From positions 372,001 through 436,000 of the forward strand of contig NZ_PPSL01000001.1 of the NCBI RefSeq assembly GCF_002954265.1: a stretch of 64,000 nt of DNA, given 5' to 3'. The position numbers and the translations under genes are program-made. This DNA comes from Flavipsychrobacter stenotrophus (lineage in GTDB: Bacteria > Bacteroidota > Bacteroidia > Chitinophagales > Chitinophagaceae). Each line of letters starts with the position of its first letter. Positions within the stretch are counted from its first letter, which is position 1. Under the pieces are notes generated by a model. The model saw nothing but the letters and a program-made list of their open reading frames with translations. It did no database searches and was not told where the DNA came from. Below are positions 55,652 to 60,966 of this stretch, piece after piece.

Positions 55652-56569
55652 TTATTTAATAAACCGTGCTATATAGTTGCCTGTTGCTATAGTCTCCGAG
55701 ATAACATAGGTGCCTGCTGAAAGACTTTCTACATTCACGGGTGTAGCCATGCCTGCTGCAAATTCTAAATTTTCAGTACGCAGTGTTCTGCCGCTGATAT
55801 CCATGATCTTCATAGCTGCGTTTGTGTTATGGGTCAATCCATCTATGCCTACGTTTAGCTGACTTCCTGCAACAGTAGGGTAGCAGATGAGCTTATGATC
55901 TGCATTACTTATGTCTGCTACTCCGGTGGTTGATGCACCTACATCATCTATCAGCAACCGGGTGCCAAATGTGGCCGGGTGCCCAAATGTAGATGTGCTG
56001 AAGGCAACACTTATAAAGCCTACATTGCCGGCTGCGGTCATTACAACGGGTGTTGACGCCAATGTGTAAGTGGAGTGAGTGTCTGACAAAAATATTTCAG
56101 CCATTCCTAATGCTGTCATAAAGCTATCATATACTACCAGGCGGGCTACGCCGGTATCGTTATTGAGCGGTAAATATTTGTAATAGAAGCTGAATGTCGC
56201 AGGGGCTACTGTAGCCGGAATGAAGTCAAAACCGCCGTAAGCCATAAACACCGAATCGGTATCGGCACCCACTGCACCTACTATACACTGGCCTGTTGTG
56301 TAGTTATAGCCATTGCCAATTTCGAGCGCCCGGGTGCCACTATGGGCATCACTGGTAGGGGTGTAGAAGTACGTGTTGGTGTATACTACCGAGTCCATGT
56401 GGAAGTTGCCATAGGTATCTGCAACACCTGAAAACAGGTAAATGTTCCCCCAGTTGCGTGTAGTGCCATCAATGTTTAGTTGCTCAAAGCCGGGATTGGG
56501 GACCTGTGCCCAAAGGCTGGTTGAAATGGTCAGTACCAGGGCGAGTAAATTTAAGCGGATTATATACAA
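55652..56569 (-). CDS. T9SS cargo with beta-sandwich domain, 5' end replaced by transposon TIR
   Basis: As it stands the frame opens with a TTG at 56569-56567 inside the left TIR of the transposon and reads MYIIRLNLLALVLTISTSLW then AQVPNPGFEQLN. After removal of the element (56555-59171) and one target copy, the frame joins an ATG at 59191 and reads MKRTLNLLALVLTISTSLWA, a normal signal peptide. The body (FEQLNIDGTTRNWGNIYLFS ... GFISVAFSTSTFGHPATFGT) resembles a carbohydrate-binding-type PCMD/jelly-roll fold, with a final sorting domain (LICYPTVAGSQLNVGIDGLT ... GTYVISET). The original -7 box now lies beyond the transposon. Expression would need a promoter within the element and TTG initiation, so the gene may be silent or altered. 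Ligand unknown. Confidence 0.85.
   Translation of the reverse strand: MYIIRLNLLALVLTISTSLWAQVPNPGFEQLNIDGTTRNWGNIYLFSGVADTYGNFHMDSVVYTNTYFYTPTSDAHSGTRALEIGNGYNYTTGQCIVGAVGADTDSVFMAYGGFDFIPATVAPATFSFYYKYLPLNNDTGVARLVVYDSFMTALGMAEIFLSDTHSTYTLASTPVVMTAAGNVGFISVAFSTSTFGHPATFGTRLLIDDVGASTTGVADISNADHKLICYPTVAGSQLNVGIDGLTHNTNAAMKIMDISGRTLRTENLEFAAGMATPVNVESLSAGTYVISETIATGNYIARFIK
56547..56554. repeat. Left target-site duplication of the transposon
   Basis: AAATTTAA directly precedes the left TIR and is repeated exactly after the right TIR (59172-59179). Eight bases is the usual duplication length in the IS1595 family. Confidence 0.92.
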
Positions 56570-56577
56570 CTTGGGAC
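56555..56577 (+). repeat. Left terminal inverted repeat
   Basis: This 23-bp end is identical to the complement of 59149-59171. It supplies the TTG (complement of 56567-56569) now opening the interrupted T9SS gene. Confidence 0.92.
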
Positions 56578-56594
56578 TAAGTAAAATTAGTCCC
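56573..56594 (+). terminator. Hairpin overlapping the left TIR, read-in terminator
   Basis: GGGACTAA (56573-56580) pairs with TTAGTCCC (56587-56594), followed by TTTTCTTTC. It could shield the transposase from transcription entering from outside. Confidence 0.6.
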
Positions 56595-56663
56595 TTTTCT
56601 TTCTATTTATCCTAACACATTAAATAAAGTTCTTTGACTTCTTTTTGCGGATTACCCCATAAG

Positions 56664-56755
56664 TAATGTATCAACCTCTGCGAAACCCTAACGGCATCTC
56701 TATAGAAACCTTAACGGTATTTATCGAGTGACCGCAGAGCAGCTATGATACATTA
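56664..56755 (+). promoter_or_regulatory. Nested inverted and direct repeats in the transposase leader
   Basis: Outer arms TAATGTATCA (56664-56673) and TGATACATTA (56746-56755) pair over 10 bp; inner arms CTCTGCG (56676-56682) and CGCAGAG (56733-56739) pair over 7 bp. Between them a 15-base unit AAACCYTAACGGYAT occurs twice (56683-56697 and 56706-56720). This may be a transposase-binding or translational control region upstream of the ATG at 56775. Confidence 0.55.
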
Positions 56756-56774
56756 GCGATGTAAACAATAGGAA

Positions 56775-57704
56775 ATGAAGCTGACAGGTTTTAAGAGTTT
56801 GAAGGAGGTAATACAATATTTCAAGACGGAAGAAATAGCACGAGAGTTCTTAGAAGCACATCGTTGGGAAGGAATACCTACTTGCCCACATTGCAACTCT
56901 CAAAAATGGTACAAGATTACAGCTCCTCGTTATAAGTGTGGCGACTGCAAAAAGAAGTACTCTGTTACTGTAGGTACTGTAATGGAAAATTCAAATATTC
57001 CTCTCTCTTCCTGGTTTATGGCAATGTACGTTCTTGCTGGTCATAAAGCTGGTATCTCTTCCATCCAGCTTGGTAAAGATATTGGAGTAACACAAAAATC
57101 TGCTTGGTTCCTCGGGCATCGCATTCGTAAAATGTTCGAGGAAAAACATCCATTATTTACAGGAATGGTAGAAGTTGACGAAGTGTACCACGGTGGACAA
57201 GACAGACACAAGAAGGATGACGATAAATTGAAGTCTGGTAGAGGAGCAGTTAATAAAACACCAGTCTTTGGATTGCTTGAAAGAGGTGGCAATGTTATTT
57301 ATAAGGTAGTAGAAAATACGGAAGCTGCCACACTAAAGCCTATCATCCGTGAATTAGTAGATGCAAAAGCGGTTATCAATACCGATGGACACAAATCTTA
57401 TTCAGGTCTTGACAAAGAATTTGCACAGCACGAAGTAGTAAAGCATAGCGAAGGTGAATATGTTCGGGGTATTTATCATACTAACGGTATCGAAGGTGCG
57501 TTTTCCCAATTACGCCGAGGTATGTATGGTATTTACATCAGAATGAGCCCAAAGCACTTGCAGAGATACGCACACGAGTTTAGCTATCGGTATAACACTC
57601 GGGCGAAAAAGGATTACGATAGGTTCGAAGGACTGCTAACCCAATTAAAAGGCAGGTTAACGTACAAGGATCTAATAGGTAAAAATGATACTATGCCTCG
57701 TTAA
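56775..57704 (+). CDS. IS1595-family (ISXO2-like) transposase
   Basis: The 309-residue protein has an N-terminal zinc ribbon (C37, C40, C55, C58 in TCPHCNSQKWYKI and YKCGDCKKKYSV) followed by a helix-turn-helix-like segment (ISSIQLGKDIGVTQKSAWFL) and an ISXO2-type DDE/N domain. Catalytic candidates are D135 (MVEVDEVYHGG), D204 (VINTDGHKSYSG) and N237/E240 (HTNGIEGAFSQLRRG). The C-terminal part (HLQRYAHEFSYRYNTR) is the usual family ending. No stop codons or frameshifts are present, so it should be active. The 3' end overlaps the minus-strand passenger gene by 14 bases. Confidence 0.93.
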   Translation: MKLTGFKSLKEVIQYFKTEEIAREFLEAHRWEGIPTCPHCNSQKWYKITAPRYKCGDCKKKYSVTVGTVMENSNIPLSSWFMAMYVLAGHKAGISSIQLGKDIGVTQKSAWFLGHRIRKMFEEKHPLFTGMVEVDEVYHGGQDRHKKDDDKLKSGRGAVNKTPVFGLLERGGNVIYKVVENTEAATLKPIIRELVDAKAVINTDGHKSYSGLDKEFAQHEVVKHSEGEYVRGIYHTNGIEGAFSQLRRGMYGIYIRMSPKHLQRYAHEFSYRYNTRAKKDYDRFEGLLTQLKGRLTYKDLIGKNDTMPR

Positions 57705-58155
57705 ATCTTTTTTTCTCCATTTCTGTAATGTATCCTGTAAACTTCTCCGCATATCTTTTACCTAAATGGTCGCTATTAAATTGTTCTTCCTTACCAAAAG
57801 ACCCCTGTACTGTGAATTTTCCCTGTAAGTTAATATTATCTATTGCCCAAAGCTTTACGGTTAGCTCGTTTATAATTTCATCTGTTCTATCCGCTGGTTG
57901 AGGACCGAAAGTAGCTTTATGAGTGGTAAGCAACATCGCCTTTTGCGTAGCTAAAATTTCTGCATGGATATAATATTCATCGTCTCCATATTTAAAACTA
58001 TGCGTGCGTCCTCTAATACTTTGGTTTATTAATTCATATAAACCTGTAAAAAAATCTGATGGGGCATTAAAATGCTCTTCAATGTCTTTATAGAATATGG
58101 GGATGTCTTCTATAAATTGTTCCTTTATTTGGTTAAATGTCGCTATAGTGCTCAT
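57691..58155 (-). CDS. Transposon passenger protein of unknown function, 154 residues
   Basis: From the ATG at 58155 the protein is MSTIATFNQIKEQFIEDIPI and continues as an acidic, mixed alpha/beta chain (HFNAPSDFFTGLYELINQSI, YYIHAEILATQKAMLLTTHK, NELTVKLWAIDNINLQGKFT, FNSDHLGKRYAEKFTGYITE). There is no signal peptide or membrane helix. A longer open frame to 58248 exists, but a -7 box match (complement of 58181-58188, TATTTTTG) places transcription just before 58155, which supports the shorter form. I do not recognise a family. Its convergent overlap with the transposase and position inside the TIRs show it travels with the element. Confidence 0.7.
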   Translation of the reverse strand: MSTIATFNQIKEQFIEDIPIFYKDIEEHFNAPSDFFTGLYELINQSIRGRTHSFKYGDDEYYIHAEILATQKAMLLTTHKATFGPQPADRTDEIINELTVKLWAIDNINLQGKFTVQGSFGKEEQFNSDHLGKRYAEKFTGYITEMEKKRFNEA

Positions 58156-58362
58156 TCTAAGTTTTAGCTTTACTAATAACCAAAAATAAGCATTCCTTAG
58201 TTGCTTTATAACGCAGTAAAAATTCTTTTTCATTTCCATCGAAGCCAAATGAATTACATTGTATATTTTAGCGGAGAAAGAAAAATTGTTTCAATGAAAT
58301 AGAGCAAAAACGAGTAAAACATATCATTACATATTAAAGAGTAGCGTTAGCTAACTTTCTTC

Positions 58363-58480
58363 GTCTGGAAAACCGCGAATTTTCAAATAGACAACCGAGA
58401 AAGATGCAAAGCGCACCCTCAAAGGGGTGTGGCTTCATCTATTTATTCAAGGTTGTCAGGGCTTCGCGGTTCCTCCAGAC
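58363..58480 (+). ncRNA. Candidate structured RNA: 118-nt rod-like hairpin inside the transposon
   Basis: Pairing from outside inwards: GTCTGGA (58363-58369) with TCCAGAC (58474-58480); AACCGCGAA (58371-58379) with TTCGCGGTT (58463-58471); an asymmetric internal loop (10 and 5 nt); GACAACC (58390-58396) with GGTTGTC (58451-58457); AGATG (58402-58406) with CATCT (58436-58440); AAGC (58409-58412) with GCTT (58432-58435); CACCC (58414-58418) with GGGTG (58425-58429). A -7-like box TAACTTTC (58352-58359) lies just upstream on the plus strand. A second stem GAGGTTC/GAACCTC (58497-58503 with 58533-58539) follows. The long rod with a central bulge recalls 6S RNA, but no consensus was checked, and a DNA-level role in transposition is also possible. 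Confidence 0.45.
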
Positions 58481-58637
58481 CTGAATGCGTAGCTCTGAGG
58501 TTCACGCCTCTCTTATTTTACCCACGTCATTGGAACCTCTGGCACTTTCACCTCGCCTCAATGTCAAATAAATCACCACCGGTAAGAATGTGATACTAAA
58601 AGTTAATCAACTAATTCATCATTCAACCAAAAAATCA

Positions 58638-59093
58638 ATGAGAACATTAATAACGGTATTATTTACCTGCATATCATTTATAGCAGTAGGTCAAAAGCAA
58701 GGAAGTAGCAAGATTGATTATACAACCAATTATAAAACAGTAACAAAACGTTGTCATTATTGTGGAAAGTCCTTTAGCCTTAGTACTCCTGCTAAAATTG
58801 CTATAAAAAGCGGTAGTCAAGAGGATATACAATCAATGGAAATCAATAGACTATTCCAAGCTAAGATGAGAAATGATTTAAACGAAAATGAAAGTTGTAC
58901 CTCTTCCCAAAATAGAACAAGAAAGCACGTATTTTACGAAGAGGATAATAAAAACTCTACTACGAGTAAAACATATAGCATGACAAAGGACGAAGCGGAT
59001 ATTTATATTTCTGGGCTAGAACCTTATATGAACCGCTATGCTTCTACAATAAAGAAAATTAGCTTTATGGTATTCTCCGCAGATATTAAGTGA
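58638..59093 (+). CDS. Secreted transposon passenger protein with CxxC motif, 151 residues
   Basis: From the ATG at 58638 the signal peptide is MRTLITVLFTCISFIAVGQK. The mature part has a CHYCGKSF motif and a later ESCTSSQNRTRKHVFY, which together could give a C2-C-H metal site, then a Lys/Ser/Thr-rich region and a helical end (TKDEADIYISGLEPYMNRYA). No family is recognised. It lies inside the right TIR and ends 9 bases before a 12-bp terminator. A secreted passenger on an IS element is unusual. Confidence 0.72.
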   Translation: MRTLITVLFTCISFIAVGQKQGSSKIDYTTNYKTVTKRCHYCGKSFSLSTPAKIAIKSGSQEDIQSMEINRLFQAKMRNDLNENESCTSSQNRTRKHVFYEEDNKNSTTSKTYSMTKDEADIYISGLEPYMNRYASTIKKISFMVFSADIK

Positions 59094-59101
59094 TATATAA
59101 G

Positions 59102-59134
59102 AAATAAGCCCTGCTAATAAAACAGGGCTTATTT
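59102..59134 (+). terminator. Intrinsic terminator at the right end of the transposon
   Basis: AAATAAGCCCTG (59102-59113) pairs with CAGGGCTTATTT (59123-59134), 12 bp, and is followed by CTTATATTTGG. Confidence 0.88.
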
Positions 59135-59148
59135 CTTATATTTGGTTT

Positions 59149-59171
59149 GTCCCAAGTTGTATATAATCCGC
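59149..59171 (-). repeat. Right terminal inverted repeat
   Basis: This is the exact 23-bp complement of 56555-56577, followed directly by the AAATTTAA duplication. Confidence 0.92.
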
Positions 59172-59179
59172 AAATTTAA
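59172..59179. repeat. Right target-site duplication of the transposon
   Basis: AAATTTAA, identical to 56547-56554. Confidence 0.92.
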
Positions 59180-59249
59180 TGTCCTTTTCATGATAGAAAA
59201 TTAAAATGTGAAATGATGAATTTATACTGATATTTATACAGCAAAGTTA
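59180..59249 (-). promoter_or_regulatory. Orphaned start codon and promoter of the interrupted T9SS gene
   Basis: The complement of 59189-59191 is the ATG that, joined across the transposon, gives M-K-R-T-L-N and the signal peptide of the gene now starting at 56569. The complement of 59242-59249 is TAACTTTG, a full TAnnTTTG match, about 50 bases upstream of that ATG. No clear TTG is seen at the -33 position. Confidence 0.8.
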
Positions 59250-59343
59250 CATCAGCACCATAGCGACATCCTAATTAAACAGGTAGACATGAGGTGTACA
59301 AGGCTTGTAAATAAGGGCTTCATAGGGTAGACAAAGGCACTTT

Positions 59344-60966
59344 TTAGAGGGATAGGATAAATTCTGTAAGATTATCCTCGGTCTCCAGCTGTAATTTTTT
59401 ACGCAGGCGGTAACGGGCAGTTTTTACGCTATCGGGAGATATATTCAATATACCCGCCATTTCTTTAATGGACATATTTAATTTTATGAGCGCACAGATC
59501 TTCAGGTCATTCGGACTGATATCGGGATATTCTGTCTTTAACTTCGTAAAGAAGTTTTTATTAATACTTTCAAAATAGGTATTAAAGTCACTCCACTCCC
59601 TGTCGTGGTTGATGCCTTTGTTGATGATCTTATTTAACGAATTGTCATTAGCCGTTTTTCTGTCCTTTTCTATTCGCTCTTTCAGTTCCTGCATCAACTC
59701 GTTTTTCTGCTGCATTTGTAATATCAGGGCGCTCAACTGGCTTTCCTTGTATTCAATTTCATTTTGCATCAATTGCTCCTGCTGTCTCCTTTGCTCCTCT
59801 ATTACCTCTATGAGGGTTTCTTTAGTTTGCAGTAGTTGCTTGTCTCTATCGTTGATACGCCTCAGCAGGTATATAGCAATACCCGATATGACGAGGATAA
59901 AGCCTATCGTCCCCCACAAAATATAGTTAGCCAGTGTGGTTATCTTTCTTTCCTTTTGTGCCAGGCTCAGTTCCCTGTCTTTTTCCTGCACCCTGAACTG
60001 AACTTCCAGGCTTTTGATCACCCTGTCTTTTTCCCACGTATTGACGGTGTCTTTTATCGACATCAGCTCCTGCTCATACTCCATGGCCTGTTTGTACTCG
60101 CCCTGTTGTTCCCGGTAATCTATAAGGCTGGTCAGGACTTTCTGATAAAAGAGTTTGTCTGAAAGCCCCTTTGCTATATCATAGGCTTTAAGATAACACG
60201 CCAGCGTGGCAGCGCGATCTTTGTCAAACACAAAGTGCCACTTACCCAGACCCAGGTAGGCGGGCACCTGCACCTGCCTGTTTTCCATACTATCGCCTAT
60301 GCGCAGCGCATGCTGGTACAGATCAAGGCTTGCGGCTTTGTTACCTGTCTGCATTTCAATGTCAGCAATATTAAAGTATGCTGCGGGCAGGTACACATAG
60401 TTATTGGTCCGCTGCCATTCGCTGAGTGCCTTTTGGTGGTAGTATAGTGCAGAGTCTGTTTTGCCCATTCGGCCATAGGCCGCACCTAGGCTGCTGTATG
60501 CCAGGCCGGTGTATCCGCCTGTGTCATTAAGCTTGCTGAAGCCATATATTACCTCTCGGCTCAGTGCTATGGCATCTTTGTTTTTACCTTGCCTTCCATA
60601 TATAGTGCTTATCAGTTGCAGGCAGCGCAGTCGGCCTTCCAATGCTACTTGCGGTTTCAGCGTTTCCAGTTTTTTGTATTGCGCTAAAGCTGCTGTAGCA
60701 TATTCCAGCCCATTGCTATAGCTGGTGCCATAGGTGCAGATACCCATATCCAGCAGAGAGAGTGCCATGTGTTCCACATTGTTTTGTTCTCTGGCATCTT
60801 CATAAGCTATACGGAAGAATTTTAATGCCTGTGTGTCGTTATCCTTTATCAACTCCTGCCAACCTTTAGCGAAGTAATTGTCCCCTTGTTTTGAATAACA
60901 TTTATTGCACACCAATATGGCTGGCAGAAAAAGAATGAATAGTAATATTTTAAAGAAGTGTTTCAA
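59344..60966 (-). CDS. Membrane-tethered TPR protein with C-terminal LuxR-type helix-turn-helix
   Basis: The 540-residue protein has a signal peptide (MKHFFKILLFILFLPAILVC), seven or so TPR units over residues 30-320 (GLAYSSLGAAYGRMGKTDSA, LPAAYFNIADIEMQTGNKAA), one membrane helix (YILWGTIGFILVISGIAIYL) near 345-365, a long coiled coil (DRDKQLLQTKETLIEVIEEQ, then RRQQEQLMQNEIEYKESQLS) and a final HTH (DLKICALIKLNMSIKEMAGI, then LNISPDSVKTARYRLRKKL). The layout is that of Bacteroidota one-component sensors with a periplasmic TPR input and a cytoplasmic DNA-binding output. The regulated genes are not evident from position. Confidence 0.88.
   Translation of the reverse strand: MKHFFKILLFILFLPAILVCNKCYSKQGDNYFAKGWQELIKDNDTQALKFFRIAYEDAREQNNVEHMALSLLDMGICTYGTSYSNGLEYATAALAQYKKLETLKPQVALEGRLRCLQLISTIYGRQGKNKDAIALSREVIYGFSKLNDTGGYTGLAYSSLGAAYGRMGKTDSALYYHQKALSEWQRTNNYVYLPAAYFNIADIEMQTGNKAASLDLYQHALRIGDSMENRQVQVPAYLGLGKWHFVFDKDRAATLACYLKAYDIAKGLSDKLFYQKVLTSLIDYREQQGEYKQAMEYEQELMSIKDTVNTWEKDRVIKSLEVQFRVQEKDRELSLAQKERKITTLANYILWGTIGFILVISGIAIYLLRRINDRDKQLLQTKETLIEVIEEQRRQQEQLMQNEIEYKESQLSALILQMQQKNELMQELKERIEKDRKTANDNSLNKIINKGINHDREWSDFNTYFESINKNFFTKLKTEYPDISPNDLKICALIKLNMSIKEMAGILNISPDSVKTARYRLRKKLQLETEDNLTEFILSL

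What the first reader, a model, noticed from the sequence alone, without database searches (positions are those of the whole stretch)
56547..59191. A 2.6-kb IS1595 transposon inserted in a signal peptide, with the original gene start reconstructable
Perfect 23-bp inverted repeats (56555-56577, 59149-59171) and an 8-bp duplication AAATTTAA (56547-56554, 59172-59179) bound the element. Deleting it plus one duplication joins 56546 and upstream coding sequence to an ATG at 59191 and a TAACTTTG -7 box (complement of 59242-59249), restoring MKRTLNLLALVLTISTSLWA. The gene now opens at a TTG inside the TIR. So one sees donor, target and outcome in a single locus, and the interrupted T9SS gene has probably lost its promoter.
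Basis: seen in the sequence. Interest (0 to 1): 0.82.

Follow-up and report, generated by a model that had tools for sequence, protein, structure and literature searches.

The report
Transposon carrying RNA-led exported-protein cassette
A jumping gene has landed in the start of a probable secreted-protein gene, and inside it travels an undescribed, strongly structured RNA that sits in front of an exported-protein gene, an arrangement that recurs on many related jumping genes.

Summary
A 2617-bp IS1595-family element (56555-59171; 23-bp perfect inverted repeats, 8-bp AAATTTAA duplication) sits in codons 5-7 of an exported-protein gene. Two orthologues beside the same regulator, without insert, begin MKK, with a -7 box 44 and 49 nt upstream. 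The "T9SS" label is marginal: both domain scores fall just under cut-off.

The larger result is the cargo. At 58336-58544 (+) lies a structured RNA of about 210 nt, ahead of a signal-peptide/CxxC ORF. It has no Rfam match and strong covariation (29 of 29 modelled pairs change on both sides among 55 members). In 50 of 55 loci the next gene downstream is co-directional.

It recurs within 3 kb of 22 of 84 IS1595 transposase places examined in the host's family. In 17 of the 22, inverted repeats (at least 18 of 22 matching) plus an exact 8-bp duplication enclose both. The RNA's place relative to the transposase varies, but an ORF follows it in 21 of 22, mostly with a hydrophobic N-terminus.

Best reading: a transporter IS whose cargo is a leader-RNA plus exported-protein cassette. 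Cis-regulation by the RNA is inferred; no RNA data were available.

The parts
56547..56554 (.). target-site duplication, left copy AAATTTAA
56555..56577 (+). left terminal inverted repeat
   Evidence: 23/23 to the right arm
56573..56594 (+). terminator-like hairpin plus T run just inside the left end, facing inwards
   Evidence: 2 such sites found in the region, 2.0 expected in shuffles; a hairpin plus T run at the same place in the sister element, by eye
56775..57704 (+). IS1595-family DDE transposase, 309 aa
   Evidence: NF033547 200 bits, PF12762, PF12760
57691..58248 (-). passenger ORF, 185 aa from TTG, no family; 39% identical to the ORF at the same place in the G176 element
58336..58362 (+). 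5' hairpin of the structured RNA
58363..58544 (+). structured RNA, modelled core: nested stems P1-P5, 3' segment plus T run, hairpin P7 with pseudoknot P6
   Evidence: R2 164 bits, R3 150 bits; covariation
58497..58520 (+). 3' segment GAGGTTCACGCCTC followed by a T-rich run; complementary to the 3' strand of P5
58638..59093 (+). cargo ORF, 151 aa from ATG, 93 nt after the RNA; N-terminal signal peptide-like stretch and CxxC motif (by eye), no family
59095..59141 (.). perfect 19-bp hairpin inside the right end; terminator-like by eye, not called by the consensus scan
59149..59171 (-). right terminal inverted repeat
59172..59179 (.). target-site duplication, right copy AAATTTAA
55652..56569 (-). 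interrupted exported-protein gene, present frame opening at TTG in the TIR
   Evidence: C-terminal T9SS domain just under cut-off
59180..59191 (-). severed original 5' end of that gene (ATG at 59191)
   Evidence: orthologues L006, L007
59242..59249 (-). severed -7 box TAACTTTG
   Evidence: comparable place in two orthologues

Best explanation
The element is an IS1595-family transporter IS. Its transposase acts on the 23-bp ends and makes 8-bp duplications (inferred from anatomy and family). It inserted into codons 5-7 of an exported-protein gene and cut it from its promoter. Its cargo includes a cassette: a structured leader RNA of about 210 nt followed by an exported-protein ORF. The RNA is not part of the transposition machinery. 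It belongs to the cargo gene and most likely controls it in cis as the 5' part of its mRNA. A long rod (P1-P5) competes with, or is topped by, a 3' segment that repeats the P5 5' strand and ends in a U run. The readout is then either early termination or access to the start codon. Shown: anatomy, conservation, linkage and orientation. Inferred: transcription, switching, function.
For: Element and insertion. Covariation: 25 of 31 pairs change on both sides in 17 close members and 29 of 29 in 55 members, 527 cells against a shuffled mean of 166, score 0.760 against at most 0.134 when the partner strand is slid. Orientation: the next gene downstream is co-directional in 50 of 55, opposite in 3, none within 900 nt in 2. 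Promoter motif TAnnTTTG 10-110 nt upstream of the modelled core in 35 of 55 against about 3.9 in shuffles; between RNA and gene in 1 of 31 gaps of 40 nt or more (3.2 in shuffles). The 3' segment pairs with P5's 3' strand better than permuted partners (0 of 20,000), and a T run follows in 53 of 55 against 19.3 in shuffles. Linkage: RNA at E<=1e-4 in 22 of 84 IS1595 places (21 of 83 sources, plus the window), 15 of them not used to build the model. Inverted repeats of at least 18 of 22 plus an exact 8-bp duplication enclose RNA and transposase in 17 of those 22; with right-hand parts swapped between loci such a pair appears in 2 of 420. The RNA's side and strand relative to the transposase vary. 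In 20 of the 22 loci the following ORF was scored: it starts -5 to 25 nt after the RNA in 15, and has a hydrophobic N-terminus in 17, against 49 of 179 ORFs around RNA loci. Control for the model: no hit at E<=0.1 outside known RNA places and their antisense strands in 393 kb.
Against: No transcript or expression data. The window's own RNA lacks a clean TAnnTTTG (only TATATTTTA). Among the 17 closest members the 3'-segment pairing is nearly invariant and shows no covariation of its own (20.0 against 19.99 permuted), and in the wider set related subgroups share both strands, so the permutation test overstates independence. That alternative pairing crosses P1-P3, so it needs a pseudoknot or refolding. 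G-U pairs are almost absent from P2 (1 of 364 standard pairs), odd for a plain RNA helix. The link to exported proteins weakens away from IS1595: hydrophobic N-termini in 13 of 18 strong members but only 12 of 30 distant ones, near the 49 of 179 control; some distant members precede DNA methylases. In 5 of 20 scored IS1595-linked loci the ORF lies 95-319 nt away, in the window 93 nt, and L230 has no ORF in range. The lack of a promoter motif between RNA and gene is only mildly below chance. 62 of the 84 IS1595 places show no RNA at E<=1e-4 within 3 kb, and 9 of 17 wider RNA loci show no IS1595 transposase in the stretch fetched.
Confidence: 0.68

Rival explanations
1. The RNA is an independent small RNA, ended at the U run, that acts in trans; downstream genes are incidental neighbours.
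For: Own promoter motif upstream in 35 of 55 and a U run in 53 of 55.
Against: 50 of 55 downstream genes are co-directional, and a promoter motif lies between RNA and gene in only 1 of 31 gaps, though 3.2 were expected by chance. The ORF begins within 25 nt in 15 of 20 IS1595-linked cases.
Confidence: 0.17
2. The structure works as DNA or RNA in transposition or recombination (a folded site, or an RNA partner of the transposase) rather than in gene control.
For: Strong link to IS1595 (22 of 84); scarcity of G-U pairs in P1-P3 (22 of 908 standard pairs) would fit a DNA hairpin.
Against: Position and strand relative to the transposase are not fixed. 9 of 17 wider RNA loci have no IS1595 transposase in the stretch fetched. 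P5 carries 36 G-U of 161 standard pairs. The tie is to the following ORF.
Confidence: 0.1
3. Ordinary IS1595 insertion; the RNA is inert luggage shared by descent among related elements.
For: The window, G009 and G176 elements are related (transposase 90% and 66%).
Against: Compensatory change throughout shows selection for the fold, and transposases of the other 19 RNA-linked places are only 38-48% identical to the window's.
Confidence: 0.05

Closest known systems
IS1595 family / transporter IS (tIS), e.g. tISCpe8, MTnSag1
   Same: IS1595 DDE transposase with zinc ribbon, terminal inverted repeats, short target duplication, passenger genes (PMC5704250 and PMC3129680, passages read)
   Different: Cargo is a structured leader RNA plus exported-protein ORF; its two passenger ORFs match no family in Pfam or NCBIfam above cut-off.
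Attenuator and riboswitch-type leader RNAs
   Same: Promoter motif, structured RNA, gene on the same strand; a GC-rich segment plus U run near the 3' end
   Different: No Rfam match; the genes that follow share no obvious pathway; ligand unknown.
Flavo-1 motif and structured 5' regions of Flavobacterium psychrophilum (PMC9723704, passages read)
   Same: Structured 5' elements in Bacteroidota without known function
   Different: Flavo-1 is in Rfam (recalled) and did not match; that paper reports Flavo-1 hits in sense or antisense alike, whereas here 50 of 55 are co-directional. Overlap with the 64 structured 5' regions listed in that paper was not tested.
DonS-type antisense RNAs of susC genes (PMC7366714, passages read)
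   Same: RNA near susC-type genes in Bacteroidota
   Different: DonS is divergent and antisense; this RNA is co-directional and upstream.

Membership tests
IS1595 family | IS1595-type DDE transposase with N-terminal zinc ribbon | tested here: met
   NF033547 200 bits (cut-off 75), PF12762 143 bits (27), PF12760 42.9 bits (25.4)
IS1595 family | terminal inverted repeats | tested here: met
   23/23; sister element 24/24
IS1595 family | 8-bp target duplication (length recalled for the family) | tested here: met
   AAATTTAA; TATTTTTT and AAAAATTA in two sister elements
IS1595 family | active transposition | not testable with these tools
   different insertion sites in sister species imply past mobility only
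transporter IS (tIS) | passenger genes between the ends, unrelated to transposition | tested here: met
   two ORFs and the RNA lie inside the TIRs; that they are unrelated to transposition rests on the absence of any family match
any Rfam family | match to a covariance model | tested here: not met
   no match to the RNA core at E<=1 in the window or at E<=0.1 in four further members
cis-regulatory leader RNA | lies 5' of and co-directional with a gene | tested here: met
   50 of 55; 3 opposite, 2 none
cis-regulatory leader RNA | mutually exclusive folds governing termination or translation | tested here: inconclusive
   complementarity and U run found, but no covariation of that pairing in the 17 closest members
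cis-regulatory leader RNA | expression responds to a signal through the RNA | not testable with these tools
   no RNA data
T9SS cargo (type A sorting domain) | C-terminal Por_Secre_tail domain above cut-off | tested here: inconclusive
   25.7 against 27, and 21.5 against 23 bits

The most novel reading that the evidence does not exclude
IS1595-family transposons of Bacteroidota are vehicles for a mobile class of cassettes, each with its own promoter, one and the same ancient regulatory RNA fold, and an interchangeable exported-protein gene. The RNA would be an undescribed leader class found across the phylum, placing whatever gene it precedes under a common control.
Probability: 0.55. Interest if true: 0.82.

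Novelty: new variant of a known kind. Interest (0 to 1): 0.7.

Why it matters
If right, insertion elements in this phylum spread surface or secreted proteins already wired to a regulatory RNA, so a newly acquired protein arrives under control. It also offers a strongly conserved RNA fold with no assigned function, whose test (reporter plus compensatory mutants) is simple. The original claim, an IS splitting a gene from its promoter, is well documented here but ordinary.

Tried and rejected
Rfam: only sub-threshold hits over the right-end hairpin, none over the RNA core. ARAGORN: no tRNA or tmRNA in 56000-60000. The RNA had no match in the plasmid and phage collections (blastn), and a strict 3'-end pattern had none in viral contigs. 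Passenger ORFs: no hit in Pfam, NCBIfam, PADLOC or PHROGs at usable scores; the 185-aa ORF matched 1 of 99 genomes drawn from the order, its own, though the G176 element holds a relative. RNAalifold on the first MAFFT alignment gave a poor fold because stems were misaligned; a hand-segmented alignment fixed it. Outward promoter from the left end into the interrupted gene: no TAnnTTTG in about 750 bp, only a TATAAT 10 nt from the edge, which is not the phylum's usual box (the TAnnTTTG consensus is named in PMC9723704, passages read). No TIR/duplication pair was found for four of the 22 RNA-linked IS1595 places: L140, L156, L223, L215. A fifth, L203, reaches only 15 of 22 and is not counted, because swapped loci reach 15 in 15 of 420. 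L208 (RNA at E 2.9e-4, repeats 21 of 22) falls outside the E cut-off and is not counted. Alignment A4 held two antisense matches and was not used for modelling. Three weak hits (L121, L125, L126) were left out of the orientation and promoter counts, and hits for which no locus was returned were not examined. The control stretches overlap one another and were mostly fetched as RNA loci. I first took L094 for a restriction gene by eye; Pfam gave no family. Literature: searches, 98 of the held open library listed no paper that I could recognise as tying a structured RNA to IS1595; this is not a search of all print.
Full report
Observation. The element runs from 56555 to 59171 (2617 bp). Its ends are perfect 23-bp inverted repeats and AAATTTAA lies on both sides. 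It is the only copy found in its 5.43-Mb genome. The genome is of the same genus as G009, and the record holding the G009 element is titled a Chitinophagaceae MAG. Joining the flanks restores MKRTLNLLALVLTISTSLWAQVPNPGFEQ, with TAACTTTG beginning 58 nt upstream of the ATG. In two other species of the genus the orthologue stands beside the same TPR-LuxR regulator without an insert. Both have an ATG opening MKK, with a TAnnTTTG box beginning 49 and 44 nt upstream. By eye, all three share an upstream repeat of the type CTTGTCTACCTCATGTCTACCTG. The effect on expression is not shown, and the T9SS label is marginal.

The transposon. The transposase is IS1595 family. A sister element in G009 (2458 bp, transposase 90% identical, same TIR, duplication TATTTTTT) interrupts a LytTR-type response regulator (named by eye); joining its flanks gives one continuous frame. 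A third, in G176 (2803 bp, transposase 66%), has its own TIR (24/24) and duplication AAAAATTA. Transcription into the element may be shielded: a terminator-like hairpin lies just inside the left TIR (where the number of such sites is no more than chance) and a perfect 19-bp hairpin inside the right one.

The RNA. Between the transposase and the right end is a region that folds better than all 100 shuffles (z = -4.3) and is conserved between the elements. Nine homologues gave a manual model of five nested stems, P1-P5, plus a 3' hairpin, P7, whose loop pairs with an upstream GAGGUUC, a pseudoknot called P6 (95.6% of cells paired, 2 of 7 pairs changed on both sides). Model R1 found it in 46 of 394 genomes of the family and 21 of 345 of the phylum at E<=1e-3, under strict filters. 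In 17 close members 25 of 31 pairs change on both sides; in 55 members, 29 of 29. In 415 kb searched with R2 and 393 kb with R3, stretches that overlap one another, nothing was found at E<=1e-4 outside known RNA places. No Rfam family matches.

Arrangement. Of 55 members (18 strong, 37 weaker), 50 have a co-directional gene next downstream, 3 an opposite one and 2 none in range. Upstream neighbours are mixed: 18 same, 35 opposite, 2 none. A TAnnTTTG promoter motif lies upstream in 35 of 55 (shuffled expectation about 3.9) but between RNA and gene in only 1 of 31 (3.2 expected). This is what a leader would look like; many of the loci are related, so the counts are not independent. The genes differ. 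Among distant members, three tested ORFs are TonB-receptor proteins with a CarboxypepD_reg-like domain, as in SusC (L104, L105, L108), two are DNA methylases (L088, and L102 of type III) and one has no family (L094); further ones look alike by eye.

A possible switch. The strand on the 3' side of P5 (GGGYGUGG) is also complementary to a downstream segment (CCACGCC) that runs into a U tract. Over 55 members the match beats every one of 20,000 permutations of partners, but inside the 17 closest members it is simply invariant. I take this as an attenuator-like or translational switch, not proven.

Link to IS1595. I examined all 84 IS1595 transposase places listed at E<=1e-60 (294 genomes of the family drawn, 59 with a match), with up to 3 kb or more on each side where the contig allows. 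Model R3 finds the RNA at E<=1e-4 in 21 of 83 and in the window: 22 of 84. Fifteen of the 22 were not in the model's training set. Inverted repeats matching at least 18 of 22, with an exact 8-bp duplication, enclose both transposase and RNA in 17 of the 22, in elements of 2.2 to 12.7 kb. The same search on swapped halves reaches 18 in 2 of 420. The own genome holds six RNA candidates at E<=0.01 in 5.43 Mb, so an even spread would put about 0.6 in the 0.55 Mb searched. The RNA lies upstream or downstream of the transposase and on either strand, so it belongs to the cargo. In 20 of the 22 an ORF of at least 60 aa was scored: it starts -5 to 25 nt after the RNA in 15 and has a hydrophobic N-terminus in 17, against 49 of 179 ORFs around RNA loci (the control includes some cargo ORFs). 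The window's ORF starts 93 nt after the RNA; L230 has none in range. Away from IS1595 the export link is weaker: 13 of 18 strong members, 12 of 30 distant ones.

Known or new. Insertion sequences with passenger genes ("transporter IS") are known in this family (PMC3129680 and PMC5704250, passages read; Siguier 2009 is cited there and was not read). A structured RNA as recurrent cargo was not found in the searches listed under Tried and rejected. I file the element as a member of IS1595 and the cassette as a new variant. The RNA may be a new leader class.

Open points. G-U pairs are nearly absent from P2 (1 of 364 standard pairs) but common in P5 (36 of 161). I cannot explain this. The signal sensed, if any, is unknown.

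Noticed in passing
window 59280-59302 (-), L006, L007: By eye, a repeat of the type CTTGTCTACCTCATGTCTACCTG lies upstream of the interrupted gene and of both orthologues, possibly an operator of the adjacent TPR-LuxR regulator; it too is now cut off from the gene.
   Followed up: partly
A3, stems P1-P3: G-U pairs are almost absent (P2: 1 of 364 standard pairs) although all 29 modelled pairs vary on both sides.
   Followed up: partly
G064:C1 (L151): A 12.7-kb stretch bounded by 22/22 inverted repeats and an 8-bp duplication holds an IS1595 transposase and the RNA, large beside the others found here.
   Followed up: no
L224, L195, L234: Cargo ORFs with an EGF-like CxNGG...CxCP pattern (by eye) recur behind the RNA, one of them in the window's own genome; for L224 Pfam gives EGF_TEN well below cut-off.
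   Followed up: partly
L104, L105, L107, L108, L111-L113, L115, L120, L124: Distant members of the RNA sit 200-658 nt upstream of susC-like genes (3 of 10 tested, all TonB-receptor plug proteins; the rest by eye), 9 of 10 in one genus of another family of the class.
   Followed up: partly
L088, L089, L091, L092, L100, L102: Distant members lie 0-16 nt before DNA-methylase-like genes (L088 and L102 tested; the others by eye).
   Followed up: partly
L129 and L132: In two species of one genus the RNA stands beside the same HAD-hydrolase-like gene (and, by eye, a tRNA in the G075 locus) but with different genes downstream, as if the cassette gene had been exchanged.
   Followed up: no
window 56573-56594: A terminator-like hairpin touches the left TIR and seems kept with changed letters in the G009 element.
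   Followed up: partly
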